64,000 bases of DNA. It comes from Agromyces ramosus (GTDB taxonomy: Bacteria > Actinomycetota > Actinomycetes > Actinomycetales > Microbacteriaceae). The position numbers were made by a program, and so were the translations under genes. Position 1 is the stretch's first letter, and every line of letters begins with the position of its first letter. Where the stretch lies: positions 372,001 through 436,000 of the forward strand of contig NZ_JAUSYY010000001.1 of assembly GCF_030817175.1 (NCBI RefSeq), written 5' to 3'. Positions 1 to 64,000 of this stretch are shown in pieces. The notes under the pieces are model-generated. The model was not told the origin of the DNA and searched no databases. It saw only the letters and a program-made list of their open reading frames with translations.

Positions 1-1278
1 ACGATGGTGGATGCCGCATTGCTCGACGGCACCGCCCATCGCGAGAGCCTCTTCGAGGCGTTCGCGCGGCGCCTGCCCGACGGGCGTCGCTACGGCGTGG
101 TCGCGGGCACGGGGCGCCTGCTCGAGCTCATCGAGCGGTTCCGCTTCGAGGAGTCAGAGCTCGACTGGCTGCGTGAGCACGAGGTCGTGCGACCTGCCAC
201 CCTCGACTGGCTCGCCGACTACCGGTTCACGGGCGACATCTGGGGCTACCGCGAGGGCGAGGCCTACTTCCCCGGCTCACCGCTGCTCACGATCCGGGCG
301 AGCTTCGCCGAGGCGGTTCTGCTCGAGACGGTCGTGCTCTCGACCCTCAACTACGACTCGTCGGTCGCGAGCGCGGCCGCGCGCATGGTGTCGGTCGCGC
401 TCGGCCGTCCCATCGCCGAGATGGGATCACGGCGCACGAGCGAGCATGCCGCCGTGGCCGCCGCGCGCGCCGCCTACATCGCGGGCTTCGATGCGACGTC
501 GAACCTCGAGGCGGGGCGCACCTGGGGCATCCCCACCATGGGCACCGCGGCGCACGCGTTCACCCTCCTGCACGACACCGAGGAGGACGCGTTCCGCGCA
601 CAGGTCGAGGCGTTCGGACCGAAGACCACCCTGCTCGTCGACACCTACGACATCGCGAAGGGTGTCGAACTCGCGGTGCGGGTGGCCGGACCGGAGCTGG
701 GGGCGGTGCGCATCGACTCGGGCGACCTGCCCACGGTCGTCGCGTCGGTTCGGGAACAACTCGACTCGCTCGGCGCGGTCGACACCCGCATCACCGTGAC
801 GAGCGACCTCGACGAGTTCACCATCGCGGGCCTCTCCGGCGCTCCCGTCGACTCATACGGCGTCGGCACGGCCGTCGTCACGGGATCGGGCTTCCCCGCC
901 GCGGGCATGGTCTACAAGCTCGTCGCCCGGCGCGACGACACCGGCGACTGGGTCGCCGTCGCGAAGGCCTCCACGCAGAAGGCGAGCGTCGGCGGGCGCA
1001 AGAACGCCGCACGGCGACTCGACACCACCCGCACGGCGCGTGAAGAGCTCGTCTTCGTCGGCGACGGCCCCGACGGCGAGGCCGAGTTCGAGGCGGGCAC
1101 GCAGTTGCGCCCGCTCCTGGTCCAGCTCATGGCTGGCGGCGACGCCGACCCCGCATTCCTCGGGCGCGCAGGCACGGAGGCCGCCAGGGCGCATCGGAGC
1201 GACACCATGCAGGAGCTGCCGATCGAGGCGTTCCGGCTGGGTCGCGGCGAACCGGTGATCCCGACGAGCTATCGCTGA
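1..1278 (+). CDS. pncB: Nicotinate phosphoribosyltransferase (5' end outside window)
   Basis: This enzyme makes nicotinate mononucleotide from nicotinate and PRPP in the NAD salvage (Preiss-Handler) pathway, in the cytoplasm. The frame is already open at base 1 and reads T-M-V-D-A, matching the family N-terminus (usually ...YELTMVDAAL...), so roughly 15-20 codons lie upstream and the ATG at base 4 is not the real start. Family features visible are GVVAGTGR near residue 35, the GSRRTSEHAA segment, MGTAAHAF with the candidate phosphorylatable histidine, LLVDTYD, and VRIDSGDL in the PRPP/phosphate site. About 425 residues are visible of an expected 440 or so. It ends at TGA 1276-1278. The AraC-type gene follows after 29 bases, but nothing shows that they work together. 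Confidence 0.95.
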   Translation, partial: TMVDAALLDGTAHRESLFEAFARRLPDGRRYGVVAGTGRLLELIERFRFEESELDWLREHEVVRPATLDWLADYRFTGDIWGYREGEAYFPGSPLLTIRASFAEAVLLETVVLSTLNYDSSVASAAARMVSVALGRPIAEMGSRRTSEHAAVAAARAAYIAGFDATSNLEAGRTWGIPTMGTAAHAFTLLHDTEEDAFRAQVEAFGPKTTLLVDTYDIAKGVELAVRVAGPELGAVRIDSGDLPTVVASVREQLDSLGAVDTRITVTSDLDEFTIAGLSGAPVDSYGVGTAVVTGSGFPAAGMVYKLVARRDDTGDWVAVAKASTQKASVGGRKNAARRLDTTRTAREELVFVGDGPDGEAEFEAGTQLRPLLVQLMAGGDADPAFLGRAGTEAARAHRSDTMQELPIEAFRLGRGEPVIPTSYR

Positions 1279-1307
1279 GCTCGCAAGACGAGCGGGCAGG
1301 GCCATCG

Positions 1308-2144
1308 ATGATCTTCCAGGAACGCGCGGCACCGCCGGAGTGGGCTCCATTCGTCACGCGTCTCTGGTATCTCGAGACACCACGCGTGCGCCGGTACGAG
1401 AAGATCCTGCCCCTCCCCTTCGTGCACCTCATCGTGAACCTGTCGGAGCCCTACCGGCTGGTCGACCCGCGTGGCCAAGCATCCGTCGTCGAAGACGCAT
1501 TCGTCTCCGGGATCCAGACCGAGTACCTCCTGATCGAGAGCCCGAGACTCATCCGCCACGTCGGCGTCGAGTTCACACCGCAGGGACTTCGCGCATTCAG
1601 CACGATCGCGCCGTCGGATGCCACCGGGCGCGTGCAGCCGGCGAGTGCGGCGCTGTCCGGCATCGCTCAGCTCACTCGGCGGCTTCGTCGACAGCCGACG
1701 CCCGACGCAGCTCTCGCGAGCCTCGAGGCGTTCCTGCACGAGCGCAGACGACCCGAATTGCAGGCCGACACACTTGTCACCGAGGTTCTGGCGGCCATGG
1801 CCGATCATCCCGACGAGCGGATCGGCGAGTTCGCCGTGCGGGCGGGAATCACCCACAAGACGGTGATCGCGCACTTCCGGGCGGCGTGCGGCATCACGCC
1901 GAAGGCGTTCGCGGAGGTGCTCCGATTCCACCGCTTCGTGACGGGGCTCCCGATCGGCGAGCACCTACCGGGGTGGGCGGACCTCGCTGCGACGTCGTGG
2001 TACTACGACCAGCCCCACGTCGTCCGCGCCTTCCGGCGCTTCAGCGGATACACGCCCGCCGAGTACGTGCGGCGGGTGACCGAGTTCGGCCCGGATGCCG
2101 CGAGCTTCGTGCCGCTCGACGAAGTGCCGCAGTCGCCGAGCTGA
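1308..2144 (+). CDS. AraC-family transcriptional regulator
   Basis: The protein has 278 residues: an N-terminal effector-like domain (about 1-150, of the kind often called DUF6597) and a C-terminal AraC/XylS DNA-binding domain (about 170-260). The C-terminal half shows the two helix-turn-helix units of the family: IGEFAVRAGITHKTVIAHFR, then a second unit with YYDQPHVVRAFRRFSGYTPAEYVR, the usual AraC ending. The N-terminal part (LPLPFVHLIVNLSEPY, VGVEFTPQGLRAF) resembles cupin-like sensor domains of this subfamily. Target and ligand cannot be told. No strong ribosome binding site precedes the ATG. Confidence 0.9.
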   Translation: MIFQERAAPPEWAPFVTRLWYLETPRVRRYEKILPLPFVHLIVNLSEPYRLVDPRGQASVVEDAFVSGIQTEYLLIESPRLIRHVGVEFTPQGLRAFSTIAPSDATGRVQPASAALSGIAQLTRRLRRQPTPDAALASLEAFLHERRRPELQADTLVTEVLAAMADHPDERIGEFAVRAGITHKTVIAHFRAACGITPKAFAEVLRFHRFVTGLPIGEHLPGWADLAATSWYYDQPHVVRAFRRFSGYTPAEYVRRVTEFGPDAASFVPLDEVPQSPS

Positions 2145-2626: not shown

Positions 2627-2652
2627 AGCTCATTGGGTCGGAACCCGCACGT

Positions 2653-2943
2653 TCACTCCTTGCGGAGGCGCTCGTAGATCTCCTTGCAGGTGGGGCACAC
2701 CGGGAACTTCTCGGGGTCGCGTCCGGGCGTCCACTTCTTGCCGCAGAGCGCGCGAACCGGCTTGCCGGTGACCGCCGATTCGAGGATCTGCTCCTTCTTC
2801 ACGTAGTGCGAGAAGCGCTCGTGGTCGCCGGGCTCGATGGCCTCCTCTTCGAGGAGCTTCTCGAGCTCGCGGTCGAGGACGGAGGTGCTGCCGCCGCCCG
2901 GGGCATCCGGGTCGGCGATGCTCACGCGCACGGAGGGATTCAT
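2653..2943 (-). CDS. DUF3039 family small protein
   Basis: A 96-residue actinobacterial protein of unknown function. The conserved part starts at STSVLDRELEKLLEEE and runs through RFSHYVKKEQILESAVTGKPVRALCGKKW to FPVCPTCKEIYERL at the C-terminus. The single Cys of ALCGKKW plus CPTC form a plausible zinc-binding knuckle. The ATG at 2943 is chosen because homologues have about 95-100 residues and because a -10 box sits 7 bases before this codon, implying a leaderless mRNA. A longer reading that starts near 3105 has no family similarity. It ends 27 bases after the convergent DUF1761 gene. Confidence 0.88.
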   Translation of the reverse strand: MNPSVRVSIADPDAPGGGSTSVLDRELEKLLEEEAIEPGDHERFSHYVKKEQILESAVTGKPVRALCGKKWTPGRDPEKFPVCPTCKEIYERLRKE

Positions 2944-2956: not shown

Positions 2957-2980
2957 CCCGCGGATGGCTCGTGGCCGGCG

Positions 2981-4555
2981 CTATGCCCGGAGGGCGGCGC
3001 CGAGGATCTCGGGCCCCCGGTGGTCGAACACGCGACCCCCGAGCCAGATGCCGGCGGCGAGCGTGATGAGCCCGAGGCCAACCCCGGAGGCGAACGACGC
3101 CACATGCCACGCGGGATCCACGAACAGCCCCAGCCACCCGAAGTAGAGGGCCGGCAGGGCGATGAGGAGCGAGCAGAACATCGTGATCGACTGCACGAGC
3201 GCGGTGACGCTGCCGGTCGACTGCGGCTGCTGGAACGGGCTGTCGCCCGGCTTCACTGCCGGGTACGGGAACCGTGCCGACGTCACCGAGCCGACCCCGA
3301 GGCCCGCCAGGAGCAGTGCGGTGCTCACGCCCACGATCGACGGCAGCAGTCGCCAATCGTTGAGCACGAACACCGTCACGGCGCTGCCGAGGCCGATCAC
3401 GAGCGCGCCCGCGATCAGCACGGGCACGAGGCGGCCCGCACGATCGGCGGCGCCGCGCACTCCCGACACCACGTGCAGCCAGACCGCGGTGGAGTCGTAG
3501 GCGGTGTCGTTGTGCAGGCTCCAGCCGAGGAAGAGACACATGAGCGGCACCGGAATGAGCCCCACGTAGAGATCGGGAACACCGGCGAGCGAAAGCGGCA
3601 CGATCACGAGCACCGGCACGATCGGCACCATCACGAGCGAGACCCAGTACCGCGCGTCGCGGAACCAGTAGGTCAAGCTGCGCGCCGCGACGGCACCGGT
3701 GGCACCGTGCGGCATGCGGTCGAACCAGCCGAGTCCGCGATAGCTCTTGCCGGATGCCTCGCGGCCGGGCGTCACGAGCATCTTGGCGACGAGCGCCTGC
3801 CAAGCGAGCCACACGACAGCGAGCGTCGCGAGGGCGAGCAGGAGCTTCAGGATCGCCGGACCCACCTCGCCGGATGCCGCATCGCCCGGCACCGCGAACG
3901 CCGCCCCGAACGGGGTCCAGCCGAGCACGCCGGCGATCGACTCCAGCACCGCGAGTCCTGACGTCGCCCAGTCGACCGACACGAGCACCACCACGAGCGG
4001 TGACACCATCACGATGAGCAGCAGACCGAGGACGCCCGTGAGTTCCCTGGCGCGGCGGGTCGAGAGCAGGAACGAGGCGATCGCCGTCGACACACGGGCG
4101 AGCAGCAGGCATGTCGCGAAGGCGAGCACCGCCGTGATCACGGCGAGGAGCGTGACGCCGGGGTCGCGCGACCAGGTCACGACGGTGCCGAGCAGCACGA
4201 TGGCGAGCACGAGCGCGGGAATCCCGATCGTCGCCGCGACAGCCAGACTGAATGCGAGCGTACGGTCGGGCAGGCCGAAGAGGGCGAACCGGCGCGGGTC
4301 CATGGTGTCGTCGACGCCGAAGATCAGCGGCACGACGATGAAGCCGACGACCGTCGCCGAGCCGGCCACGATGAATGCATCACGGATGACCTCGACGTCA
4401 TCGACGAACCGCAGGCCCACGAGCGTCGTGAACAGGACTGCTGCGAATCCGAGCCCGTAGACGAGTCCGATGAGGATGCCGACGACCTGCCAGGGGCTTC
4501 GCCGGAAGATGTTGCCGAGCAGTCGCAGCTTCAGTCGGAGAAACTGTGCTGTCAT
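2981..4555 (-). CDS. ABC exporter permease (large multi-span)
   Basis: A 524-residue membrane protein and the likely partner of the ABC ATPase encoded just upstream on the same strand (4817-6535). It begins MTAQFLRLKLRLLGNIFRRS, a positively charged N-terminus typical of this actinobacterial permease group, and has about twelve hydrophobic stretches with repeated G/A/V/L-rich helices. The substrate is unknown. An alternative ATG 18 codons upstream (4609) and a longer frame to 4699 exist. I chose 4555 because the family-like start is there, but the 261-base spacer to the ATPase gene and the lack of a clean ribosome binding site leave the start uncertain. Confidence 0.75.
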   Translation of the reverse strand: MTAQFLRLKLRLLGNIFRRSPWQVVGILIGLVYGLGFAAVLFTTLVGLRFVDDVEVIRDAFIVAGSATVVGFIVVPLIFGVDDTMDPRRFALFGLPDRTLAFSLAVAATIGIPALVLAIVLLGTVVTWSRDPGVTLLAVITAVLAFATCLLLARVSTAIASFLLSTRRARELTGVLGLLLIVMVSPLVVVLVSVDWATSGLAVLESIAGVLGWTPFGAAFAVPGDAASGEVGPAILKLLLALATLAVVWLAWQALVAKMLVTPGREASGKSYRGLGWFDRMPHGATGAVAARSLTYWFRDARYWVSLVMVPIVPVLVIVPLSLAGVPDLYVGLIPVPLMCLFLGWSLHNDTAYDSTAVWLHVVSGVRGAADRAGRLVPVLIAGALVIGLGSAVTVFVLNDWRLLPSIVGVSTALLLAGLGVGSVTSARFPYPAVKPGDSPFQQPQSTGSVTALVQSITMFCSLLIALPALYFGWLGLFVDPAWHVASFASGVGLGLITLAAGIWLGGRVFDHRGPEILGAALRA

Positions 4556-4816
4556 TCCCCGACTCACCAGTGTTTTACTTGGCTGTTCGGTCAGTGTCGC
4601 TTGTGTCATCCCCGCGAAACCCCGTGCTCCCTCGTTGCCGTGCTTCGAGCCTACTTCGTCGCACGCCGGCTCGCGTGTTTCCTCCGGATGCCCCGTCACC
4701 GCCCCGAGGCTCGGGCCTGTGGCGATCCGACGCCCGGCGATGGGTGCGCGACCGGCAGTGACGCGCGTGCGGTGGTCGCGGCCGACGACCCGGGTGAGTT
4801 CAGGAAACGGGTGCGC

Positions 4817-6535
4817 TCAGTCGGAGAAGCTGTGCAGCCACTCCATGCCCTCGGCGGCCTTGCGGCCACCCGCGAGCTCGACGAAGCGATCTTCGAGGCT
4901 CTGTCCGGCGCGAACCTCGTCGAGCGTGCCGGCCGCGAGCACTCGCCCGGCGACGACGATGGCCGCGGAGTCGCAGACGCGTTCGATGAGGTCCATGCCG
5001 TGGCTCGACAGCACGACGGTGCCGCCGCCGGCGACGTAGCGTTCGAGGATCTCGGTGAGGTTCGCCGCCGAGACGGGATCGACGGACTCGAAGGGCTCGT
5101 CGAGCACGAGCAGTCGCGGCGAGTGGATCATCGCGCACGCGAGCGCGATCTTCTTCGTCATGCCGGCGGAGTAGTCGGCGACGAGGCGGTCGACCGCATC
5201 GTCGAGGCCGAAGGCGCCGATCAGGTCGGCACTGCGCTCGCGCACCGTTCGACTGTCGAGCCCGCGGAGCACGCCCGAGTAGTAGAGCAGCTGGGCGCCG
5301 GTGAGCCGGTCGAACAGGCGGAGACGGTCGGGCAGCACGCCCGTCGCGCGCTTGGCGGCGCGGCGATCGGCCCACGCGTCGATGTTGTTGATGCGCACGG
5401 TGCCCGCGTCGGGTCGCAGCAGGCCGGTGACCATCGAGAGCGTCGTGGTCTTGCCCGCACCGTTCGGTCCGACGATGCCGAAGAACGAGCCGGCGCGCAC
5501 GTCGAGGGTGATGCCGTCGACCGCGGTGTTCGCGCCGAATCGCTTCACGAGACCCTCGATGGCGAGCACCCTGGGCGCGTCAGCCGGCGGCGCCACGCGT
5601 GCGACGCGAAGCGTTCGCTTCTTTCGGCTGGCTGCTTTCTTGGGCACGGCGATGACCGCGACGGCCTGCTGACCGGTACCGGATGCCTCGGCCGGCGCCT
5701 CGCGGGCGGCGGCGGACGGGTCATCGGGGGTGACGCTCTCGGGCGCCGCGGGCGTTTCAGGCGCCGCGGGCGTCTCGGCCTCGACCTCGGGCGCGTCGGC
5801 CACGACTGCGGCGACCACTGCGGCTTCGACGGCGGCCGACGGACGGCGCGGTGCGCGCTCCGTCGTCTCCTCATCGATCTCGGATGCGTGCGCGACCTGT
5901 GGTTCGGAGGGCTCCGCGGCGACCGGAGGCTCTGAGATCGCTGCCGCCAGCACCTCGGTCGCCGGCTTACGGGGCGCGCGCTCCACCTCGGTGGTCTCGG
6001 TGGTGAGCGACGCCGCCACACGCTGCGCCTGGCGCTGCGCGCTCGCAGCGGCAGCCGCACGGCTGCGTGACGTCGACGTGCTCGCAGCGCCCGTGGTGGA
6101 AGACGAGCGCGTCGCGCGGGTCGCCTTCGCGGCCTCGCCACGCGCGGTGGCGGCTTCCGCCGAGGCGGCCCGGGACGCGGCAGTGCGCTTCGAGGCAGCG
6201 GGCGGCTTCGTGTCACCGTCTGACGCTGCGGCGTCGGCGGATGCCGACGTCTTGCGTGCCGTCGTCTTCGAGGCGGCCGGCTTCGCGGCGCCGGTTTTGG
6301 CCGCCGAGGTCTTCGCCGCTGGGGTCTTCGCGGCAGCGCTCTTCGCCGACGCGGAGTTGGCCGCAGCCGACTTCGCGGTCGCGGGCTTCGCCGCGCCCGA
6401 CTTCGCCGCGGCGGGCTTCACGCGGCTCGACGATGGCGCTGCCGAGCCCGAAGGGGATGCCCGCTTCGCAGACGCCCCCGTGTCGGTGCCTTCAGCAGCT
6501 TCGTCGTCGTGTTCTGAGCGCGAAACGGAAGTCAC
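4817..6535 (-). CDS. ABC transporter ATPase with Ala/Lys-repeat N-terminal extension
   Basis: The last 250 residues of this 572-residue protein form a normal ABC ATPase: VLAIEGLVKRFG from residue 323, Walker A GPNGAGKTTT at 356-365, signature YSAGMTKK in place of LSGGQ, Walker B LLVLDEPFES, and the switch histidine in VVLSSHGMD. The first 320 residues are low complexity. Residues 41-95 are eleven tandem pentapeptides of the form [P/S/T]-x-A-A-K, and then come Ala/Arg/Ser-rich and Ala/Glu/Pro-rich stretches with no predicted fold. No ATG lies near the ATPase boundary, and a leaderless-type promoter fits the GTG at 6535, so I infer the extension is translated. It presumably energises the permease at 2981-4555. 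Confidence 0.85.
   Translation of the reverse strand: MTSVSRSEHDDEAAEGTDTGASAKRASPSGSAAPSSSRVKPAAAKSGAAKPATAKSAAANSASAKSAAAKTPAAKTSAAKTGAAKPAASKTTARKTSASADAAASDGDTKPPAASKRTAASRAASAEAATARGEAAKATRATRSSSTTGAASTSTSRSRAAAAASAQRQAQRVAASLTTETTEVERAPRKPATEVLAAAISEPPVAAEPSEPQVAHASEIDEETTERAPRRPSAAVEAAVVAAVVADAPEVEAETPAAPETPAAPESVTPDDPSAAAREAPAEASGTGQQAVAVIAVPKKAASRKKRTLRVARVAPPADAPRVLAIEGLVKRFGANTAVDGITLDVRAGSFFGIVGPNGAGKTTTLSMVTGLLRPDAGTVRINNIDAWADRRAAKRATGVLPDRLRLFDRLTGAQLLYYSGVLRGLDSRTVRERSADLIGAFGLDDAVDRLVADYSAGMTKKIALACAMIHSPRLLVLDEPFESVDPVSAANLTEILERYVAGGGTVVLSSHGMDLIERVCDSAAIVVAGRVLAAGTLDEVRAGQSLEDRFVELAGGRKAAEGMEWLHSFSD
6251..6415 (-). repeat. Eleven tandem 15-base units encoding [PST]xAAK pentapeptides
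   Basis: Within the ABC ATPase gene the minus strand encodes eleven back-to-back pentapeptides, residues 41-95, each ending in Lys except one ending in Asn. Examples are PAAAK, SGAAK, SAAAK, TPAAK, TSAAK and TGAAK. The DNA copies are similar but not identical, so the peptide rather than the DNA appears to be conserved. Confidence 0.85.
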
Positions 6536-9839: not shown

Positions 9840-10823
9840 ATGACCGATCGTGTACACCGCATCACCTCCATGGGCGCGGATGCCCCGAACGAGGCCAACG
9901 CCCAGACTGGCGCGCGCCCCGACGAGCGCGATGCGCAGGCGACCCCCACGACACCCCGGGCGTACGGCATGGAGCGCGGCATCGACCGGGTGCTGTCCAT
10001 CCAGCGGCCCATCGTCGTGGCGCACCTCCGCGGCATCCGTCGCCGGGCGCCCGGCGCCACACCCGAGCAGCTCGTGCGCATCCTCGAGCGCCGGTACCTC
10101 GCCGCCGTCACGACCGGGGGTGCCGCGGTCGGCGCGACCGCCGTGGTTCCCGGCATCGGCACGGGCGTCACGCTCGCGCTCTCCGGCGTCGAGACCGCCG
10201 GGTTCCTCGAGGCGACGGCCCTGTTCGCACAGTCGGTGGCAGAGGTGCACGGCATCGCCGTCGAGAATCCCGATCGGGCGAGGGCGCTCGTGATGACGCT
10301 GATGCTCGGCAACGAGGGCGTCGACCTCGTGCGCCAGTTCGCCGGACAGGCAAGCGGCACGGGCATTGCGCGCAACGCCTATTGGGGCGAACTCATCACC
10401 AACACCATGCCCAAGGCGCTCATGGGCTCGGTCGCCGACCGCCTTCGCAGCGTGTTCATCAGGCAGTTCGCGCTGAAGGGCGGCGCGGGCATCATCGGCA
10501 AGGCCATCCCGTTCGGCATCGGCGCCGCGATCGGCGGCGTCGGCAACCACGTGCTCGGGCGGCGGGTGCTGCGCCAGGCACGCCTCGCGTTCGGGCAGGC
10601 ACCCGTGGTGCTCCCGGCCGAACTCGAACCCCGCGACCGCGATGCGCTGCTGCGAGGCACGGGCACCCGGATGTCACGGGCCGGCACCGCCGTCGGCGGC
10701 GCCGCGCTCACCGTGGGGCGGGGCATCCAGGCTGCCGGCCGAGCGACCGGCCGAGCCGCCCGAATCAGGCGGCGGAGCGGCGCCGAAGACGGCGAGCTCG
10801 ACGGCGACGACTCGGCGTCCTGA
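9840..10823 (+). CDS. Uncharacterised glycine-rich membrane-associated protein
   Basis: A 327-residue protein I cannot assign to a named family. Residues 1-45 are polar and probably disordered. The centre has glycine/alanine-rich hydrophobic stretches: TTGGAAVGATAVVPGIGTG near residue 90 and GGAGIIGKAIPFGIGAAIGG near residue 220. The second is glycine-zipper-like and could sit in or on a membrane. The C-terminus is Arg/Ala rich and ends in an acidic tail (EDGELDGDD). A faint resemblance to EcsC-type proteins is possible but not convincing. It lies between the exporter genes and the TagF-like gene, so a role in envelope biology is a guess from position only. Confidence 0.7.
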   Translation: MTDRVHRITSMGADAPNEANAQTGARPDERDAQATPTTPRAYGMERGIDRVLSIQRPIVVAHLRGIRRRAPGATPEQLVRILERRYLAAVTTGGAAVGATAVVPGIGTGVTLALSGVETAGFLEATALFAQSVAEVHGIAVENPDRARALVMTLMLGNEGVDLVRQFAGQASGTGIARNAYWGELITNTMPKALMGSVADRLRSVFIRQFALKGGAGIIGKAIPFGIGAAIGGVGNHVLGRRVLRQARLAFGQAPVVLPAELEPRDRDALLRGTGTRMSRAGTAVGGAALTVGRGIQAAGRATGRAARIRRRSGAEDGELDGDDSAS

Positions 10824-42196: not shown

Positions 42197-42233
42197 CTCC
42201 GGCGAAACGCGCATCGGCGCGGCATCCGTGTTG

Positions 42234-52836: not shown

Positions 52837-54348
52837 TCAGTCGCGCGGTTCCACCACGCGTGCGAGCAGTTCGATGAGCAGGCGCTCGGTGAACGGCGCG
52901 GGCAGGGCGGCCACGAGCGCGAGCACGGGCGCCTGCCGCTCGGGCAGCGCCCCTGCGGCATCGCTTCCGCCGAGCAGCCCGAACGCACCGAGCAGTCCGG
53001 CCGCGGTGTCGGAGTCGAGCCCGACGGATGCCCCGGCGAGCGCGTCGGCACCGCCCGGCAGCGTCGCCAGGAGCCCCGTGAGCAGTGCCGCCCCGTCGAC
53101 CGGCGGCTCGCCGCGGACGGCATCGGCCGCGGCGACGAGCGCGGCCGAGAGGTCGGGCAGCACCGCCTCGGTCACGGGCGTCACCGTCAGGTGCGTCGTG
53201 TGCGGCAGCCGCGTGCCGTCGGATTGGGTGAGCGCCGGCTGCAGTTGCAGGTGCCAGCCCGCGACGCGCGCGACATCCGCCCAGTGATGCGGATCGACCC
53301 GCCGATCGGCCGGCACCCCGTCGTCGACGGCGACGGCGAAGAGCGGGCCGGTGGGCGAGCCCACGACGTGCAGGCCCTCGATGCCGTCGACGAGCTCACG
53401 CAGGGCAGCGGTGGCACGGGCCACCTGCGAGGTGAGCCGGGCGAAGCCGTCGTCGCCGAGCGCCTCGGTGATCGCCCAGGCCGCCGCAAGCGGTCCGGCG
53501 GGCTTCGAGCCCGTCAGCGTCGGGTTCACGACGGGGTAGCCGGGCCACGCCGTGGTCGCGAAGTACTGGCGGCGCTGGCGATCGCGGCCGCGGGTGAGCA
53601 GCACGGACACGCCCTTCGGCGCGTACCCGTACTTGTGCAGGTCGGCCGAGAGGCTCGTGACGCCCGGCACCCGCAGGTCCCATGCGGGCAGCGGATCGGG
53701 CCAGAACGCGAGCGCGAAGCCCCCGATGCAGGCGTCGACGTGCAGCGCGATGCCCCGCGGCGACGTGACGGCCGCGACATCGGCGACCGGGTCGAGTCCG
53801 GCGAACGGGTACGAGGGTGCGCTCACCACGACGAGCGCGACGTCGTCGCCGAGTCGCTCCTCGATGTCGGACGCCGCGACCGCACCGGTGATGGGGTCGA
53901 CGGGCACGAGGTCGAGCGCGAGCCCGAAGTACTCGGCCGCCTTGTGGAACGCCGCGTGCACGGTCACGGGCGCGACGAGCCTCGGCACCCGCGGCGTGCC
54001 CGCGCGAGCTGCCCGCCAGGCGTCACGGGCGGACTTCACGGCGAGCAGGCAGCTCTCGGTGCCCCCGGACGTGACCGAGCCGACGACATCGGCGTCGCCG
54101 CCGAGCACGCGCCGGGCGAAGCCCACGAGCCCGGCCTCCATCGTCGCGACCGAGGTGAAGGTCGTGGGGTCGAGTCCGTTGACGGGCTGCACGAGCCGCG
54201 CGGCCTGTGCGGCGAGCTCGTCGAGCTCGGGCATGCCCGAGTCGTAGACGTACGAGAGTACCCGGCCGCCGTGCGTGGGGGCATCGACGGCCCGCAATTG
54301 CTCGAGCTCGGCGAGGATGTCGGATGCCTCGCGGCGGAAGCGGCTCAT
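52837..54348 (-). CDS. PLP-dependent decarboxylase/lyase (sphingosine-phosphate-lyase-like)
   Basis: A 503-residue fold-type I PLP enzyme of the group II decarboxylase/S1P-lyase branch. PLP-site features are SVTSGGTESCLLAVK (phosphate loop, about 91-105), His131 stacking (VTVHAAFHKAAEY), Asp205 (LHVDACIGGF) and Schiff-base Lys239 (SADLHKYGYAPKG). The C-terminal 100 residues are Ala/Gly-rich helices (GALLTGLLATLPGGADAL in pattern) that are longer than in typical lyases. The start overlaps the stop of an upstream MFS transporter (ATGA), so import and cleavage of the same substrate, perhaps a phospho-amino-alcohol or amino acid, is likely but unproven. Confidence 0.87.
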   Translation of the reverse strand: MSRFRREASDILAELEQLRAVDAPTHGGRVLSYVYDSGMPELDELAAQAARLVQPVNGLDPTTFTSVATMEAGLVGFARRVLGGDADVVGSVTSGGTESCLLAVKSARDAWRAARAGTPRVPRLVAPVTVHAAFHKAAEYFGLALDLVPVDPITGAVAASDIEERLGDDVALVVVSAPSYPFAGLDPVADVAAVTSPRGIALHVDACIGGFALAFWPDPLPAWDLRVPGVTSLSADLHKYGYAPKGVSVLLTRGRDRQRRQYFATTAWPGYPVVNPTLTGSKPAGPLAAAWAITEALGDDGFARLTSQVARATAALRELVDGIEGLHVVGSPTGPLFAVAVDDGVPADRRVDPHHWADVARVAGWHLQLQPALTQSDGTRLPHTTHLTVTPVTEAVLPDLSAALVAAADAVRGEPPVDGAALLTGLLATLPGGADALAGASVGLDSDTAAGLLGAFGLLGGSDAAGALPERQAPVLALVAALPAPFTERLLIELLARVVEPRD

Positions 54349-55724
54349 CGTGCCACCGCCGTCACGGCGGCTGCTGCGGCATCCGCGTCGATGTCGCTGC
54401 GCCTGAGCGGATAGCGACGCAGTGCGAAGAGGCTCGCGGCGACGAGCAGCGCGGGGATCACGCTGAAGCTCAGCGCGATGCCCGCCACCGCGGTGGGCGA
54501 CTGCGTGACGATCTCGGAGCCGCTCGACTGGAGGTATCCGGTGAGGGCAAGCACGATCGTGAGCACGGTGGCGCCGAGCGCCATGCCGGCCGTCTCGCCG
54601 GCCGTCCAGACGCCGCCGAAGCTGCCCGCCCGACCGAGTCCGTGGGTACGCGCGTCGTGCGAGATGACGTCGGGCAGCATGGCCATGGGCAGCGACTGCA
54701 TGCCCGCGTACCCGATCCCCGCGACCGCGACGGGGAGGTAGATCCACGGCCCGGGCGCCCAGACCATGCCGACCAGTGTCAGCGCCGCGACGCCGAACAC
54801 GACGCTCGCGATGGCGAACCCGCGCTCCTTGCCGACGCGGCGGGCGACCCGCTCCCAGACCGGCGCCGCGAACACGGCCGGCGCGATGAGCGCCACGAAC
54901 AGGTAGGTGACGGCGCCCTCGTCGCGGAGCACCCAGGTCGCCACGAACTGGGCTCCGGCCAGCATGAGGCCCGTCGCGAGCCCCTGCAGCACGAATGCCG
55001 CGAGGAGCGCGCGGAACGGGGCGCTCCGCCGCAGCGCGGCGAGGCCCTCGGCGTAGCCGGCACGGATGCTCCGGCGAGGCGCGGCATCCGTCACCGCCAG
55101 GTTCTTCGGGGCGGTCGTCGACGCCACGAGCATGCCCACCCCGATGACGACGCCCGCGACGAGCGCCATGACGAGGTAGCCCGTGTGCTCGTCGGCGAAG
55201 GCGCCGCGGAGCTCGGGACCGCCCGCGCCGAACAACAGGATGGCGATCGTGAGCACCACGACCCGCCAGGTCAGCAGCCGCGTGCGGGCGTCGTAGTCGG
55301 TGGTCAGCTCTGCCGGGAGGGCGATGTAGGGCACCTGGAAGAGGCTGAAGGCAGTCGCGGTGGTGAGGAAGGACAGGAAGACCCAGACCGTGGCGACGGC
55401 CGGGATGCTGCCCGCCGGCACGGCGAAGGTGAGCAGGAAGCCGACCGGCAACGCGATCGCTCCGACGACCATCCAGGTGCGGCGGGTGCCGGTGCGCACG
55501 AGACGGCGATCGCTCCGCTCGCCGATCCACGGGTCGATCACGACGTCCCACACCTTCGCGGCGGTGACGACGAGCCCGGCGACGAGCGCCGTGACGCCGA
55601 GCGTGTCGGTCAGGTAGTAGACGAGTACGAGGCCGGGAAGGGTGGCGAAGCCGCCCGTGCCGATCGACCCGATCGCATAGCGGGTCACGACACCGCGGGA
55701 AATGCTTCGCTCCGTTGCGGTCAT
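54345..55724 (-). CDS. MFS transporter, GPH/MelB-like
   Basis: A 459-residue twelve-helix transporter of the glycoside-pentoside-hexuronide:cation symporter type. It has VWDVVIDPWIGERSDRR (the MelB-like cytoplasmic loop with Asp and Arg), FSLFQVPYIALPAEL, and LPDVISHDARTHG in the second half, matching the internal-repeat motifs of that family. The substrate is unknown. Coupling to the downstream lyase gene suggests it imports the lyase substrate. The ATG has TACACT 6 bases upstream, so the operon mRNA is probably leaderless, and its promoter is back to back with that of the dehydrogenase gene. Confidence 0.9.
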   Translation of the reverse strand: MTATERSISRGVVTRYAIGSIGTGGFATLPGLVLVYYLTDTLGVTALVAGLVVTAAKVWDVVIDPWIGERSDRRLVRTGTRRTWMVVGAIALPVGFLLTFAVPAGSIPAVATVWVFLSFLTTATAFSLFQVPYIALPAELTTDYDARTRLLTWRVVVLTIAILLFGAGGPELRGAFADEHTGYLVMALVAGVVIGVGMLVASTTAPKNLAVTDAAPRRSIRAGYAEGLAALRRSAPFRALLAAFVLQGLATGLMLAGAQFVATWVLRDEGAVTYLFVALIAPAVFAAPVWERVARRVGKERGFAIASVVFGVAALTLVGMVWAPGPWIYLPVAVAGIGYAGMQSLPMAMLPDVISHDARTHGLGRAGSFGGVWTAGETAGMALGATVLTIVLALTGYLQSSGSEIVTQSPTAVAGIALSFSVIPALLVAASLFALRRYPLRRSDIDADAAAAAVTAVAR

Positions 55725-60082: not shown

Positions 60083-61180
60083 TCACGCCTCGCCCGTGAG
60101 CCACGAGCGCAGCGCCCGCTCGCACGAGAGGATCTGCTCGACGGCGACGCGCTCGTCGTCGGCGTGCGCCTTCAGCGGATCGCCCGGACCGAAGTTCACG
60201 GCAGGGATGCCGAGTGCACTGAAGCGCGCGACATCCGTCCATCCGTACTTCGGCCGCGCTTCAGCGCCGACGGCGTGCACGAACTGCCGGGCGAGCGGCG
60301 CGTCGAGCCCGGGACGAGCGCCCTCGGACGCGTCGACGACGGTGACGTCGTAGTCGTGGAACAACCGGTGCACGATCGCGGATGCCTCGGACACCGAACG
60401 GCTCGGCGCGAAGCGGTAGTTCACCGTGAGCACCGCCTCGTCGGGGATCACGTTGCCGGCGACGCCGCCCGTGACGCCCACAGCGTTCAGTCCTTCGCGG
60501 TAGTCGAGCCCGTCGACCTCGACGGTCTCGGCCTGGTACGCCGCGAGCCGCTCGAGCGCTGGGGCGAGCTTGTGGATCGCGTTCTCGCCGACCCAGCTGC
60601 GCGCCGAGTGCGCTCGCAGCCCGGTGGCTCGCACCTCGGCACGAAGCGTGCCGTTGCAGCCACCCTCGACCTGGCCGTTCGACGGCTCGCCGAGGATCGC
60701 GAAGTCACCCACGAAGAGGTCGGGCCGGTTGTGGGCGAGCCGGCCGAGGCCGTTCAGCGACGCGGCCACCTCCTCGTTGTCGTACCACATCCACGTGAGG
60801 TCGACGATGGGCTCCGCGAGCTCGACCGCGAGCTTCAACTGCACGGCGACGCCCGCCTTCATGTCGACGGTGCCCCGCCCCCAGAGGAAGCGCTCGTCGT
60901 CGATCGTCTCGAAGCGCGTCGGCAGGTTGTCGTTGATCGGCACCGTGTCGAGGTGCCCGGCGATCACCACGCGACGGTCGCGGCCGAGGTGCGTGCGGGC
61001 GACCACGGTGTCACCATCACGGACGACCTCGAGGTGCTCGGCCTCCGCGAGCGCCGCGACGATGAGATCGGCGAGCGCCGTCTCGTCGCCCGAGACGCTC
61101 GGGATGTCGCAGATCGCCCGGGTGATCGCCACGGGATCGGCGGTGAGGTCGAGCGGGGGCCGGCGCGCTTCGAGGGGCAT
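60083..61180 (-). CDS. dapE: Succinyl-diaminopimelate desuccinylase
   Basis: A 365-residue di-zinc hydrolase of the M20 family that removes succinate from N-succinyl-LL-diaminopimelate in lysine/mDAP synthesis. Metal ligands are visible in VVIAGHLDTVPINDN (His, Asp), LWGRGTVDMKAGVAV (bridging Asp), WYDNEEVAA (catalytic Glu and ligand Glu), ILGEPSNGQVEGGCNGT (Asp-like ligand region) and the final His near NFGPGDPLKAHADDE. ATG 61180 is set by the leaderless-type -10. It is divergent from dapD, the enzyme two steps earlier, with a 79-base shared promoter region. Confidence 0.94.
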   Translation of the reverse strand: MPLEARRPPLDLTADPVAITRAICDIPSVSGDETALADLIVAALAEAEHLEVVRDGDTVVARTHLGRDRRVVIAGHLDTVPINDNLPTRFETIDDERFLWGRGTVDMKAGVAVQLKLAVELAEPIVDLTWMWYDNEEVAASLNGLGRLAHNRPDLFVGDFAILGEPSNGQVEGGCNGTLRAEVRATGLRAHSARSWVGENAIHKLAPALERLAAYQAETVEVDGLDYREGLNAVGVTGGVAGNVIPDEAVLTVNYRFAPSRSVSEASAIVHRLFHDYDVTVVDASEGARPGLDAPLARQFVHAVGAEARPKYGWTDVARFSALGIPAVNFGPGDPLKAHADDERVAVEQILSCERALRSWLTGEA

Positions 61181-61259: not shown

Positions 61260-62231
61260 ATGCCCGCGAACGCCGATGCCCTCTCCCCTGCCCCGCGCCT
61301 CGCGTGGGGCCATGGACTCGCCACGATCGCCGCCGACGGCACCCAGCTCGACGCGTGGTTCCCCGCGCCGGCGCTCGGCGCGCGGCCCGCAACTGCGGCA
61401 TCCGAGTCCCTTCCGGCGGAGACCCTCGAGCTCGTTGGCGCCGACTCCCGGCGCGCCGTGACCATCGAGGCGGTGACGGTCGAGGTCGACCTCGACGCTC
61501 CCCCGGCCGGCACGGCCGACGCGTACCTGCGCCTGCATGTGCTGTCGCACCTGCTGGCCCGCCCCAACACCGTGAACCTCGAGGGCGTGTTCGCGCACCT
61601 GCCCGCCATCGTGTGGACGAACGCCGGCCCGGTGCATCCGGCCGACTTCGACCGGCTGCGACCGAGCCTCCAGCGCGCCGGCATCCACGCGACCGGGCTC
61701 GACAAGTTCCCCCGCCTGCTCGACTACGTCACGCCAGAGCGTGTGCGCATCGCGGATGCCTCGCGCGTGCGCCTCGGCGCCCACCTCGCACCCGGCACGA
61801 CGGTCATGCACGAGGGGTTCGTGAACTTCAACGCCGGCACCCTCGGGGCCTCGATGGTCGAGGGACGCATCTCGCAGGGCGTCGTCGTCGGCGACGGCAG
61901 CGACATCGGCGGCGGCGCCTCGATCATGGGCACCCTCTCGGGCGGCGGCACCCAGCGGGTGACGATCGGCGAACGCGCCCTGCTCGGCGCCAATTCGGGC
62001 ATCGGCATCTCGATCGGCGACGATTCGGTCGTCGAAGCGGGCCTCTACGTCACGTCCGGCACGAAGGTCGTCGTGCTCGGCGGTGCCGGCGAACGGCCGC
62101 GCACCGTCAAGGCACTCGAACTCTCGGGAGTGGCGAACATCCTCTTCCGCCGAAACTCCCTGAACGGGCAGGTCGAAGTGCTCTCGCGCAGCGGCGACGG
62201 TGTCGCGCTGAACGCCGCGCTGCACGCCTGA
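61260..62231 (+). CDS. dapD: Tetrahydrodipicolinate N-succinyltransferase
   Basis: A 323-residue enzyme that adds succinate from succinyl-CoA to tetrahydrodipicolinate in lysine/mDAP synthesis. It is the actinobacterial DapD form: an N-terminal alpha/beta domain with LRLHVLSHLLARPNTVNLEG, then a left-handed beta-helix with hexapeptide repeats (VRLGAHLAPGTTVMHEGFVN, QGVVVGDGSDIGGGASIMG, GANSGIGISIGDDSVVEAG). Catalytic Glu is expected in MVEGRIS. The ATG at 61260 is supported by the -10 spacing. An out-of-frame ATG at 61256 is ignored. Confidence 0.95.
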   Translation: MPANADALSPAPRLAWGHGLATIAADGTQLDAWFPAPALGARPATAASESLPAETLELVGADSRRAVTIEAVTVEVDLDAPPAGTADAYLRLHVLSHLLARPNTVNLEGVFAHLPAIVWTNAGPVHPADFDRLRPSLQRAGIHATGLDKFPRLLDYVTPERVRIADASRVRLGAHLAPGTTVMHEGFVNFNAGTLGASMVEGRISQGVVVGDGSDIGGGASIMGTLSGGGTQRVTIGERALLGANSGIGISIGDDSVVEAGLYVTSGTKVVVLGGAGERPRTVKALELSGVANILFRRNSLNGQVEVLSRSGDGVALNAALHA

Positions 62232-62256: not shown

Positions 62257-62312
62257 TGGGTGCTCAGGCCGCTTCCCGGGCGGCCGAGCCGTGCACATCA
62301 CGAAGGAGTGAC

Positions 62313-64000
62313 GTGGGTACCGACGCCCCGAGAACCCGCAGGCACCGCGGACTCAGCCTCCTGATCGGCCTGCTCGTGACCGTGCTGGTGCTCGCCATCG
62401 TCGGCGCGGGCGTCGGCTGGTGGACCGTGCAGCGTTCCTTCCCCACCACGAGCGGCCGGGTCGACGCTCCCGGCCTCACCGCCGCGGTCGTCGTGTACCG
62501 CGATGACGCCGGCGTGCCGCAGCTCGTCGCCGAGACCGACCACGACCTCTTCTTCGCGCAGGGCTACGTGCACGCGCAAGACCGATTCTGGGAGATGGAC
62601 TTCCGCCGGCACGTCACGGCCGGCCGGGTCGCCGAGCTCTTCGGTGAGTCGCAGGTCGCCACCGACGCGTTCATCCGCACCCTCGACTGGCGTGGCATCG
62701 CCGAGCAGGAATACGCCCTCCTCGACGAGCGGTCCCGGGCAGGCTACGACGCCTACGCCGAGGGGGTGAACGCGTACCTCGGTGAGCGCAGCGGCGCCGA
62801 CCTCTCACTCGAATACGCCGTCCTCGGGCTGCAGAACCCCGGGTACTCCCCCGAGCCGTGGACGCCTGTCGACTCGATCGCGTGGCTGAAGGCGATGGCG
62901 TGGGACCTCCGCTCCAACCTCGGCGACGAGATCGACCGTGCCCTGCTCGCGACGGTCCTGCCGCCCGAGGAGGTGGCGCGGCTGCACCCCGACTATCCCT
63001 GGGGCGCGAAGCCCACGATCGCCGGCGGCCCGCTCGGAGCGGCGCCGGCCGCGAGCTCCGCGTCGCCGGTCGAGCTCGTCGAACCGATCGCCGGCACCGG
63101 GTCGGTCGCGACGCCCGAATCCGCACCGCACGCCCCAGCGGATGCCGCGACGGGCGACTATGGGGTCGCTCTCGCGTCCCTCCGCGCCGTGCTCGACGGG
63201 ATCCCGGAACTCCTCGGGCCAGAGGGCGGCGACCTCGGCTCGAACTCGTGGGTCGTGTCCGGCAGCCTCACCGAATCCGGGCTGCCCCTGCTCGCGAACG
63301 ATCCGCACCTCGGACCCGCGATGCCGTCCATCTGGGCCCAGATGGGCCTGCACTGCGCAGAGCTCCGCGACGATTGCGGCTACAACGTGGCCGGCTACAC
63401 GTTCTCCGGCCTGCCTGGCGTGGTGATCGGGCACAACGAGCGCATCGCGTGGGGGTTCACGAACCTCGGCCCCGACGTCGCCGACCTCTACCTCGAGCGC
63501 GTCGAGGGCGACACCTACGAACTCGACGGCGTCATGACGCCGCTGTCCCTGCGCGAAGAGGTCATCGAGGTCGCGGGCGGCGATCCCGTCACGATCGCGG
63601 TTCGCTCGACGACGCGCGGGCCGCTCGTCACCGACATCGGCGAGGACTTCGGCCAGGTCGCTGCGACCGGCGCACCCGAAGGCGCCGACCACGTCTCACT
63701 GCAGTGGACGGCCCTCTCTCCCGGAACCACGGCGCAGGCGATCTTCGCCCTGAATCGCGCCGCCGACTGGGACGCCTTCCGCTCGGCCGCGGCGCTCTTC
63801 GACGTGCCCTCCCAGAACCTCGTCTACGCCGACGTCGACGGCAACATCGGCTATCAGGCGCCCGGCCGCATCCCGGTGCGCCGTTCCGGCGATGGCACCG
63901 TGCCGCTCGCCGGCTGGACGAGCGCGAACGGATGGTCGGGCACCATTCCGTTCGACCAGTTGCCGTCGGTGCTCAACCCGCCCGCCGGCTACATCGTCAC
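62313..64000 (+). CDS. Penicillin acylase family N-terminal-nucleophile hydrolase (3' end outside window)
   Basis: The frame starts at GTG with GAAGGAG 4 bases upstream and is open to the window end (562 codons visible of perhaps 850-900). A signal-anchor helix at about 15-36 (SLLIGLLVTVLVLAIVGAGV) precedes the alpha-subunit motif DHDLFFAQGYVHAQDRFWEM. A spacer peptide follows, and the autocatalytic Ser312 lies in LGSNSWVV, the new N-terminus of the beta subunit. After it come LLANDPHLGPAMPSIWAQM, GLPGVVIGHNERIAWGFTN and TTRGPLVTDIG. Family members hydrolyse amides such as penicillins, acyl-homoserine lactones or aculeacin-like lipids. The substrate here is unknown. It is extracytoplasmic. 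Confidence 0.92.
   Translation, partial: MGTDAPRTRRHRGLSLLIGLLVTVLVLAIVGAGVGWWTVQRSFPTTSGRVDAPGLTAAVVVYRDDAGVPQLVAETDHDLFFAQGYVHAQDRFWEMDFRRHVTAGRVAELFGESQVATDAFIRTLDWRGIAEQEYALLDERSRAGYDAYAEGVNAYLGERSGADLSLEYAVLGLQNPGYSPEPWTPVDSIAWLKAMAWDLRSNLGDEIDRALLATVLPPEEVARLHPDYPWGAKPTIAGGPLGAAPAASSASPVELVEPIAGTGSVATPESAPHAPADAATGDYGVALASLRAVLDGIPELLGPEGGDLGSNSWVVSGSLTESGLPLLANDPHLGPAMPSIWAQMGLHCAELRDDCGYNVAGYTFSGLPGVVIGHNERIAWGFTNLGPDVADLYLERVEGDTYELDGVMTPLSLREEVIEVAGGDPVTIAVRSTTRGPLVTDIGEDFGQVAATGAPEGADHVSLQWTALSPGTTAQAIFALNRAADWDAFRSAAALFDVPSQNLVYADVDGNIGYQAPGRIPVRRSGDGTVPLAGWTSANGWSGTIPFDQLPSVLNPPAGYIV

What the first reader, a model, noticed from the sequence alone, without database searches (positions are those of the whole stretch)
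1..64000. The word GGATGCC/GGCATCC is over-represented on both strands and overrides codon preference
Reading by eye, I located about 47 copies of GGATGC or its complement in the first 21.7 kb (for example 1616, 2092, 3751, 3872, 5681, 9004, 9876, 10031, 13048, 17352, 17947, 19240, 19248, 20467), roughly one per 460 bases. Assuming about 69% G+C (not measured), random expectation is about one per 1.5 kb. Copies occur in both orientations with no obvious skew. Inside genes they use codons that are otherwise rare here: Asp-Ala is GAT-GCC where GAC dominates, and Ala-Ser is GCA-TCC. The DNA word therefore seems selected, not the protein. Candidates are a Chi-like pause site for AdnAB, a DNA-uptake or methylation word, or a chromosome-organising motif.
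Basis: partly seen in the sequence, partly recalled or inferred. Interest (0 to 1): 0.7.

Follow-up and report, generated by a model that had tools for sequence, protein, structure and literature searches.

The report
Uptake-like DNA word in Agromyces
A short DNA word is scattered thousands of times through the genomes of Agromyces soil bacteria, is written in even against the genes' own codon preferences, and behaves like the 'take up my own kind's DNA' tags of Haemophilus and Neisseria, which I did not find reported for this branch of bacteria.

Summary
The window is Agromyces (Microbacteriaceae). GGATGCC is the core of an asymmetric word, CGGATGCCNCG: 32 copies in the window (1.3 expected), 513 in an 864-kb sample (18 expected), 2,349 in the 4.01-Mb genome. 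It has no strand bias (256 leading, 257 lagging). In genes it overrides codon choice: Ala-Ser with the right flanks is GCA-TCC in 213 of 261 cases, with neither flank 14 of 921; Asp-Ala is GAT-GCC in 157 of 158 against 216 of 906. A codon-pair null predicts 69 of 438.

Several sister genera share the core GGATGC with other flanks (dialects); most Leifsonia, Clavibacter and Rathayibacter lack the excess. Close pairs are mostly inverted and form hairpins. The word is scarce in one conjugative-type island and not enriched in seven Microbacterium phages. ComEA, ComEC and Tad-type pilus genes are present, but equally in genera without the word.

Best explanation: an uptake sequence like DUS/USS, accumulated by biased DNA uptake, here in Actinobacteria. 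A chromosome-organising word, Chi, a methylase site and codon bias fit less well. Preferential uptake and the receptor are untested.

The parts
2092..2102 (+). CGGATGCCGCG; in gene 1308-2144(+), read CCG GAT GCC GCG (PDAA)
2899..2909 (-). word copy; in gene 2656-2931(-), CCG GAT GCC CCG (PDAP)
3751..3761 (+). word copy; in gene 2984-4555(-), CGC GAG GCA TCC GGC (REASG)
4685..4695 (+). word copy outside called genes
5680..5690 (+). word copy; in gene 4820-6421(-), GCC GAG GCA TCC GGT (AEASG)
9877..9887 (+). word copy; in gene 9870-10823(+), GCG GAT GCC CCG (ADAP)
10029..10039 (-). word copy; in gene 9870-10823(+), CGC GGC ATC CGT (RGIR)
11107..11117 (-). word copy; in gene 10858-12132(-), ACG GAT GCC TCG (TDAS)
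13050..13060 (+). word copy; in gene 12245-13102(-), CGC GGC ATC CGG (RGIR)
15635..15645 (-). word copy; in gene 15170-16867(-), ACG GAT GCC GCG (TDAA)
17352..17362 (-). word copy; in gene 17038-18261(+), GAC GCG GCA TCC GAG (DAASE)
19239..19249 (-). word copy outside called genes
20464..20474 (-). word copy; in gene 19361-21466(+), GAC GAG GCA TCC GAC (DEASD)
25723..25733 (-). word copy; in gene 25243-26355(-), TCG GAT GCC CCG (SDAP)
26755..26765 (-). word copy; in gene 26519-27895(+), CGC GCG GCA TCC GGC (RAASG)
28251..28261 (+). word copy outside called genes
28681..28691 (-). word copy outside called genes
29559..29569 (-). word copy; in gene 28746-30527(-), TCG GAT GCC CCG (SDAP)
29888..29898 (+). 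word copy; in gene 28746-30527(-), TCC GAG GCA TCC GTC (SEASV)
32971..32981 (+). word copy; in AdnA/B-like gene 32715-36020(-), CGC GGC ATC CGG (RGIR)
39663..39673 (-). word copy; in gene 39451-39756(+), GCC GCG GCA TCC GCG (AAASA)
42218..42228 (-). word copy outside called genes
43515..43525 (-). word copy; in gene 43213-44241(+), GCC GAG GCA TCC GAA (AEASE)
44957..44967 (+). word copy; in gene 44296-45873(+), TCG GAT GCC CCG (SDAP)
48232..48242 (-). word copy; in gene 48085-48828(-), ACG GAT GCC GCG (TDAA)
50895..50905 (+). word copy; in gene 50749-51909(+), GTC GGA TGC CCC GCC (VGCPA); kept in 15 of 25 aligned Agromyces loci
53025..53035 (+). word copy; in gene 52840-54348(-), GCC GGG GCA TCC GTC (AGASV)
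54321..54331 (+). word copy; in gene 52840-54348(-), CGC GAG GCA TCC GAC (REASD)
55080..55090 (-). word copy; in gene 54348-55688(-), ACG GAT GCC GCG (TDAA)
60379..60389 (+). word copy; in gene 60086-61180(-), TCC GAG GCA TCC GCG (SEASA)
61753..61763 (+). word copy; in gene 61260-62231(+), GCG GAT GCC TCG (ADAS)
63139..63149 (+). word copy; in gene 62313 to window end (+), GCG GAT GCC GCG (ADAA)

Best explanation
CGGATGCCNCG is an uptake-type sequence of Agromyces, working like the DUS of Neisseriaceae and the USS of Pasteurellaceae. A surface DNA receptor of the transformation machine binds the word; because DNA carrying it is taken up and recombined more often, the word accumulates all over the chromosome, in both orientations, wherever the encoded protein tolerates it, and marks DNA of close relatives. 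The receptor is most likely a minor pilin of a Tad/Flp pilus, which hands DNA to ComEA and ComEC. Related genera share the core GGATGC but have drifted to other flanks; some genera lost the word or never had it. Shown here: the word, its excess over codon and Markov nulls, its symmetry, the inverted pairs, scarcity in one mobile-type island, no enrichment in seven phages, dialects, presence of ComEA, ComEC and T2SSE-family ATPase genes. Inferred: that Agromyces transforms naturally, preferential uptake, the receptor, and molecular drive as the cause.
For: 11-mer 513 against 18.3 by Markov-3; 438 coding against 31.6 (synonymous) and 68.8 (codon-pair); Ala-Ser GCA-TCC 213 of 261 with flanks against 14 of 921 with neither; Asp before GCC is GAT in 157 of 158 against 216 of 906. 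2,349 copies in 4.01 Mb, 585 per Mb; H. influenzae 86-028NP has USS10 1,014 and USS11 754 per Mb (PMC7811141, passages). 256 leading, 257 lagging. 74 copies outside genes (0.78/kb), 437 inside (0.57/kb); 1.27/kb between convergent genes, 16 copies. 23 of 28 close pairs are inverted, 12 of the 23 outside called genes; the 5 of these 12 that I folded are hairpins. DUS also form inverted pairs tied to terminators and occur in dialects with a common core (PMC3630211, passages). 1 copy in 20 kb of an ICE-like stretch; DUS are atypically distributed in mobile elements (PMC7371117, abstract). Seven Microbacterium phages: O/E of CGGATGCC 1.24, against 5.17 in a Microbacterium chromosome. Shared core, different best flanks. 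Window sites intact in 58 of 150 ortholog alignments, neighbouring words identical in 54 of 777. ComEC and T2SSE hits in 33 of 33 genomes; ComEA-model hits in 33 of 33, over the curated cut-off in 19. The actinobacterium Micrococcus luteus needs its tad (Flp pilus) loci to transform (PMC4322843, passages). Hi-C links report Microbacterium transformed by a free plasmid in mixed culture (PMC10257627, passages).
Against: No experiment shows uptake bias, or even competence, in Agromyces. ComEC, ComEA and T2SSE genes are as present in genera without the word, and classical PilB-type hits do not track it. No receptor identified. Word-poor stretches are also of lower G+C, so composition may explain part of the depletion; only one stretch was recognised as mobile, and its neighbour L205 is not poor (9 in 20 kb). 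10 of 23 inverted pairs overlap as an 18-base palindrome and 11 of 23 lie inside genes, whereas the DUS paper says that paired DUS do not overlap, apart from one species. A weak fall of density with distance from dnaA (Spearman -0.36, p 0.02, 41 stretches) is not predicted. Dialects overlap: the Agromyces word is also 10-11 times expected in Microbacterium and Cryobacterium. The Hi-C plasmid was synthetic, so that uptake did not obviously need a word. rRNA genes, which USS avoid, were not in my sample.
Confidence: 0.6

Rival explanations
1. A chromosome-organising word: an unknown nucleoid or condensation protein binds CGGATGCCNCG all over the chromosome, and selection keeps the sites, as proposed for other highly iterated words.
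For: Chromosome-wide, unskewed, near-Poisson spacing; held above background between species; weak rise towards the origin (Spearman -0.36, p 0.02); scarce in one mobile-type stretch, not enriched in seven phages.
Against: Does not by itself predict inverted hairpin pairs or dialects with different flanks, nor several sister genera without the excess. No candidate protein was found; none was searched for.
Confidence: 0.17
2. A Chi-like site that moderates the AdnAB helicase-nuclease during break repair.
For: An AdnAB-like gene pair lies in the window (UvrD and PDDEXK_1 domains in both); asymmetric word, frequent on the chromosome, scarce in one mobile-type stretch.
Against: No leading-strand bias, 256 against 257, where E. 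coli Chi is biased (recalled). Codon overriding in over 80% of eligible sites is stronger than I know for Chi (recalled). Dialects would need changing AdnAB specificity, not tested.
Confidence: 0.1
3. The site of a solitary DNA methylase, kept for regulation or protection.
For: A PF01555 methylase of RsrI/CcrM type is in 26 of 26 Agromyces genomes and in all 32 named Microbacteriaceae genomes searched (nearest solved chains RsrI and CcrM).
Against: Its central 85 residues, which I took for the target-recognition region, are 82-96% identical to Agromyces G000 in 28 of 28 other sequences aligned, word-free genera and another family included (one of 30 loci dropped for lack of the motif, and methylases of five further places not fetched). 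m5C methylases (PF00145) are patchy, 15 of 26. Phages do not avoid the word. Other methylase families were not searched.
Confidence: 0.06
4. Codon-pair preference, dipeptide frequency or context-dependent mutation.
For: Codon-pair null predicts 543 of 959 coding GGATGCC; maximal-order Markov model of the window nearly predicts the heptamer.
Against: The same nulls give 31.6 and 68.8 for 438 copies of the 11-mer; choice of GCA-TCC and GAT depends on flanks up to 4 bases outside the codons; density is higher outside genes; phages of a sister genus lack the excess.
Confidence: 0.04

Closest known systems
DUS dialects of Neisseriaceae (Frye et al. 2013, PMC3630211; passages seen)
   Same: Short asymmetric word, inside genes and as inverted pairs tied to gene ends; shared core with lineage-specific flanks; atypical in conjugative elements (PMC7371117, abstract).
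   Different: Core is GGATGC, not CTG; host is a high-G+C Gram-positive; inverted copies often overlap; uptake bias and receptor (ComP in Neisseria) not shown here.
USS of Pasteurellaceae (PMC7811141; passages seen)
   Same: Comparable density (585 per Mb here; 754-1,014 per Mb in H. influenzae 86-028NP); lower in coding sequence and in acquired DNA.
   Different: Unrelated sequence; no uptake assay here.
Flp/Tad-pilus transformation of Micrococcus luteus (PMC4322843; passages seen)
   Same: Same phylum; ComEA, ComEC and tad loci. The topA-linked Tad locus of G000 encodes a short protein with AAVGFAGLL, close to AAVGFAGVL printed for M. luteus Flp in PMC6370729 (comparison by eye).
   Different: The term 'uptake sequence' does not occur in that paper's main text; no word is described.
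HIP1 of cyanobacteria (recalled)
   Same: Very frequent chromosomal word kept against codon choice.
   Different: HIP1 is a palindrome; this word is not.
Chi sites (recalled)
   Same: Short, asymmetric, over-represented.
   Different: No leading-strand bias here.

Membership tests
DNA uptake sequence (DUS/USS) | Short word in hundreds to thousands of copies, far above composition and codon nulls | tested here: met
DNA uptake sequence (DUS/USS) | Both orientations, no strong replication-strand bias | tested here: met
   256 leading, 257 lagging of 513
DNA uptake sequence (DUS/USS) | Lower density in coding sequence than between genes | tested here: met
   0.57 against 0.78 per kb
DNA uptake sequence (DUS/USS) | Inverted pairs forming hairpins near gene ends | tested here: met
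   23 of 28 close pairs inverted; 12 of 23 outside called genes, 11 inside; 5 of 12 folded, all hairpins
DNA uptake sequence (DUS/USS) | Scarce in newly acquired DNA | tested here: inconclusive
   1 copy in the one stretch recognised as ICE-like (L020), 3 in L206 and 9 in L205 beside it; other poor stretches not shown to be mobile; phages not enriched
DNA uptake sequence (DUS/USS) | Related species carry dialects with a common core | tested here: met
   the Microbacterium form is the least distinct
DNA uptake sequence (DUS/USS) | Transformation machinery present | tested here: met
   ComEC and T2SSE in 33 of 33, ComEA model 33 of 33 (19 over cut-off), word-free genera included; in G000 ComEA has SLBB and HHH_3 domains
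DNA uptake sequence (DUS/USS) | Avoids rRNA genes | not tested
   no 16S signature in the sampled stretches
DNA uptake sequence (DUS/USS) | Cells preferentially take up DNA bearing the word | not testable with these tools
   needs an uptake assay
DNA uptake sequence (DUS/USS) | A receptor that binds the word | not tested
   candidates are small pilin-like proteins of Tad loci L188, L189; three given to Pfam, no hit
Chi site | Leading-strand bias of the E. coli kind (recalled) | tested here: not met
Chi site | Moderates the cell's helicase-nuclease | not testable with these tools
   AdnAB-like pair present in the window
Solitary methylase site | Methylase specificity tracks the word | tested here: not met
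   for the conserved PF01555 methylase only; PF00145 patchy; other families not searched
HIP1-like palindrome | Palindromic word (recalled) | tested here: not met
   asymmetric; an 18-base palindrome only where two copies overlap, 10 cases
KOPS/AIMS-type polar word | Skew towards the terminus (recalled) | tested here: not met

The most novel reading that the evidence does not exclude
Microbacteriaceae evolved, independently of Neisseria and Haemophilus, a sequence-specific DNA uptake system run by a Tad/Flp pilus: a minor pilin reads a GGATGC-core word, lineages have their own dialects, and the dialects act as mating barriers. As far as my searches show, it would be the first uptake-sequence system in Gram-positive bacteria.
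Probability: 0.45. Interest if true: 0.9.

Novelty: new variant of a known kind. Interest (0 to 1): 0.8.

Why it matters
A 2020 paper says that strong uptake preferences for short motifs are shown by species in two families, Pasteurellaceae and Neisseriaceae (PMC7811141, passage). If the word found here is an uptake sequence, the phenomenon arose again in a distant phylum with a different pilus, so that the question of how and why uptake sequences evolve could be tested on an independent origin. It would also point to a transformation route, and a simple tag for DNA delivery, in a large group of soil bacteria. Even if it is not an uptake sequence, a word that rewrites synonymous codons at 213 of 261 and 157 of 158 eligible sites needs a strong DNA-level cause that is so far unnamed.

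Tried and rejected
Maximal-order Markov statistics on the window alone absorb most of the heptamer's signal; replaced by an 864-kb sample with low-order Markov and codon nulls. The search tool's control (pattern read backwards) contains TAG and is rare for that reason; I do not rely on it.

Presence or absence of ComEC, ComEA and T2SSE-family ATPases as the reason why some genera have the word: all are in every genome searched. A prophage test in Agromyces failed: no TerL_ATPase match over the cut-off in 16 genomes, one below it in a Microbacterium; that one served as bait for phages. The seven phages are not a broad sample (four Dismasvirus, two Armstrongvirus, one unplaced), and the chromosome compared is of another Microbacterium species than their hosts. 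Other families of the order: in four genomes of 100 kb each no comparable word; the strongest is ACGACGCCG in G026, 39 against 9.3. The first methylase alignment mixed strands and is void; one search replaces it. Trees: only 52 of the 80 loci used (Agromyces and Cryobacterium thinned, short rows dropped), one gene, and 20-kb loci are noisy.

Paper searches: searches gave no paper; one search gave 8 unrelated ones; some searches gave 3, 4, 36 (20 listed), 14 (10 listed) and 21 (8 listed), read as titles and abstract starts, plus passages of the papers named here. The library holds open-licence papers only. One search was to show what is known of Chi for AdnAB; its passages do not say.

Full report
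WHAT WAS CHECKED. The window is bases 372,001-436,000 of a one-contig genome of 4,012,902 bases. A protein of the window (50,749-51,906) finds 25 Agromyces loci first, at 80-90% identity, then other Microbacteriaceae at 67-73%, so the genus is taken to be Agromyces.

THE WORD IS LONGER. In 864 kb (window plus 40 stretches of 20 kb) the flanks of GGATGCC are biased: C before it in 73%; after it a loose position (G 58%), then C 76% and G 62%. CGGATGCCNCG occurs 513 times, 264 on + and 249 on -, with N = G 247, C 115, T 110, A 41, against 18.3 by a third-order Markov model. Single substitutions at positions 2, 4 and 5 lie at 0.4-1.4 of expectation. Others are partly tolerated: T at position 7 (10.4), any base at position 11 (5.9-17.3) and at position 1 (3.3-3.5), T at 3, 6 and 8 (4.5-5.4), A at 3 and at 7 (2.8, 3.1). 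The genome has 1,175 + 1,174 copies.

IT OVERRIDES CODONS. Genes were called by my own codon-model script (765 genes covering 89% of the sample), not by a standard gene finder. Of 437 copies inside called genes, 213 are read xxC GNG GCA TCC Gxx and 157 xCG GAT GCC NCG; the frame with the favourite codons GGC ATC has 26, the other three 22, 14 and 5. Ala-Ser with the right flanks is GCA-TCC in 213 of 261, with neither flank in 14 of 921; Asp before GCC is GAT in 157 of 158 with both flanks, 216 of 906 with neither; cases with one flank only were left out. Arg-Gly-Ile-Arg shows little effect, 26 of 28 GGC-ATC against 1,018 of 1,203 elsewhere, as those codons are preferred anyway. The coding count is 438, against 31.6 +/- 4.3 (60 within-gene synonymous shuffles) and 68.8 +/- 7.9 (40 codon-pair resamplings trained on the same genes). 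Under a third null, which keeps amino acid and both junction bases, on 200 kb with 6 replicates, CGGATGC and GGATGCC rank first and second of all coding heptamers of Agromyces.

WHERE IT LIES. dnaA is at 1.754 Mb. Taking the origin there and the terminus opposite (assumed), 256 copies are leading and 257 lagging, while 62.6% of codons are leading; density falls weakly with distance from dnaA (Spearman -0.36, p 0.02, 41 stretches). Counts per bin are close to Poisson (variance/mean 1.02 at 1 kb, 1.16 at 4 kb, poor stretches left out). Density is 0.57 per kb in genes and 0.78 outside; 1.27 between convergent, 0.84 between divergent and 0.67 between tandem genes (16, 22 and 34 copies). Of 28 pairs closer than 60 bases 23 are inverted; 10 of these overlap as CGGATGCCGCGGCATCCG; 12 lie outside called genes, 11 inside. 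Five of the twelve, chosen by me, were folded: -29.5 to -55.3 kcal/mol, z -4.8 to -9.3. None was tested as a terminator.

MOBILE DNA. Three of 41 stretches are poor: L020 (1 copy), L040 (3) and L027 (4), all of 66-67% G+C. L020 encodes, judged by eye from translations, an FtsK/TraD-like ATPase, a ParB-like protein and membrane proteins as in conjugative elements. L040 is a tandemly doubled Tad/Flp pilus locus (by eye; two T2SSE hits there). Stretches taken beside them: L206 3, L205 9, L204 22, L203 23, L207 18. Seven Microbacterium phages (293 kb) have O/E 1.59 for GGATGCC, 1.24 for CGGATGCC, 1.95 for GGATGCCG; 200 kb of a Microbacterium chromosome has 4.17, 5.17 and 6.98. The phages neither collect nor avoid the word.

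RELATIVES AND DIALECTS. GGATGCC counts are 2,611-5,916 in 24 of 24 other genomes of the genus and 576-1,853 in 15 of 15 genomes of other families of the order. 25 of 25 Agromyces loci hold at least four 11-mers. The 11-mer in 33 genomes (34 asked, one not held): Agromyces 1,210-2,734 (4); Microbacterium 550-845 (5); Mycetocola 437, 674; Glaciibacter superstes 623; Leifsonia flava 614; Okibacterium 360; Cryobacterium 264-420 (3); Herbiconiux 68, 186, 464; Leifsonia poae 203; four other Leifsonia 55-70; Clavibacter 63, 63; Rathayibacter 29-37 (3); Frigoribacterium 20; Plantibacter 42; Naasia 72. Best forms differ (O/E in sampled DNA): Agromyces CGGATGCCNCG 30.9 (Microbacterium 10.0, Cryobacterium 11.3, Herbiconiux 3.6; Clavibacter, Leifsonia aquatica and Rathayibacter 0-0.4); Cryobacterium ARCGGATGCY 27.9 (Agromyces 10.8, Microbacterium 5.2, Herbiconiux 4.9); Herbiconiux CGGATGCGCG 11.2 (0.6-1.9 in the six other genera of the table); Microbacterium CGGATGCCG 8.5, hardly above Agromyces (7.7), so its dialect is the least distinct. 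Leifsonia aquatica has a weak CGGGATGC (2.9), Clavibacter a different palindrome, CGGATCC (2.6). In four genomes of other families GGATGC itself is at 1.0-1.2. On a one-gene tree of 52 rows the label 'core O/E of at least 2.5' needs eight changes, six forced by well-supported branches; but the cut also splits Agromyces and leaves Microbacterium low, so the tree is only suggestive.

SITE HISTORY. In orthologous DNA of 25 Agromyces loci (80.5-84.6% identical where aligned), window sites are intact in 58 of 150 alignments; words 33-60 bases away, compared over the same ten positions, in 54 of 777. Seen from the other genomes, 58 of 195 sites are intact in the window and 66 are one base off. Agromyces mediolanus keeps 0 of 15. 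Sites turn over, but are held above background.

MACHINERY. ComEC (PF03772) and T2SSE (PF00437) match in 33 of 33 genomes; the ComEA model TIGR00426 matches in 33 of 33, over its cut-off in 19, and not over it in G000, where SLBB and HHH_3 domains support the gene. Which T2SSE hits are Tad-type and which PilB-type I judged from scores. In G000 ComEA and ComEC are neighbours (L190:8273-11253), one Tad locus lies by topA (L189:9588-12638) with the same neighbours in word-free Rathayibacter (L191), and another is at L188:5873-10429 (names by eye). Micrococcus luteus needs its tad loci to transform (PMC4322843, passages). The machinery permits transformation; it does not say which genera prefer a word.

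RIVALS. The PF01555 methylase (26 of 26 Agromyces; 32 of 32 named Microbacteriaceae genomes) has a central region 82-96% identical in 28 of 28 other sequences aligned, word-free genera included; one of 30 loci, from a Rathayibacter, held another methylase and was dropped. AdnAB lies in the window, but the lack of strand bias speaks against Chi of the E. coli kind. A chromosome-organising protein is the strongest rival and cannot be excluded.

VERDICT. Six tested features of uptake sequences are met, one (mobile DNA) is inconclusive, and the two that define function, preferential uptake and a receptor, are untested. I file it as 'works like an uptake sequence', not as a proven member.

Noticed in passing
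L146-L155 (Clavibacter CASJ009): The palindrome CGGATCC/GGATCCG is far above the codon null (270 against 85.5 in coding sequence), while it is below Markov expectation in Agromyces (0.4), Herbiconiux (0.1) and Microbacterium phages (0.3).
   Followed up: partly
L260:1432-2310 and relatives among L235-L264: A RsrI/CcrM-type DNA methylase is conserved in all 32 named Microbacteriaceae genomes searched and in one genome of another family; its target is unknown.
   Followed up: partly
L040 (G000 2.30-2.32 Mb): A Tad/Flp pilus locus is doubled in tandem in a word-poor, lower-G+C stretch.
   Followed up: no
L020 (G000 2.20-2.22 Mb): Conjugative-type island with a 2,306-aa RHS/YD-repeat-like protein (by eye).
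   Followed up: no
L225-L229 (G026, another family): ACGACGCCG is moderately above the codon null (39 against 9.3); possibly another word of the same kind.
   Followed up: no
864-kb Agromyces sample: CTAG is strongly avoided (0.24 of Markov expectation) and GGACT/AGTCC is 2.26 times expected.
   Followed up: no
window 32715-36020 and 36020-39130 (-): Adjacent AdnA/AdnB-like helicase-nuclease genes, each with UvrD and PDDEXK_1 domains.
   Followed up: partly
L077 and other Rathayibacter loci near the Mrp gene: Words around TCGATACGCC and GGCTACTCGA are repeated in the 63 kb of orthologous Rathayibacter loci but not prominent in 200 kb elsewhere; perhaps a local repeat.
   Followed up: no
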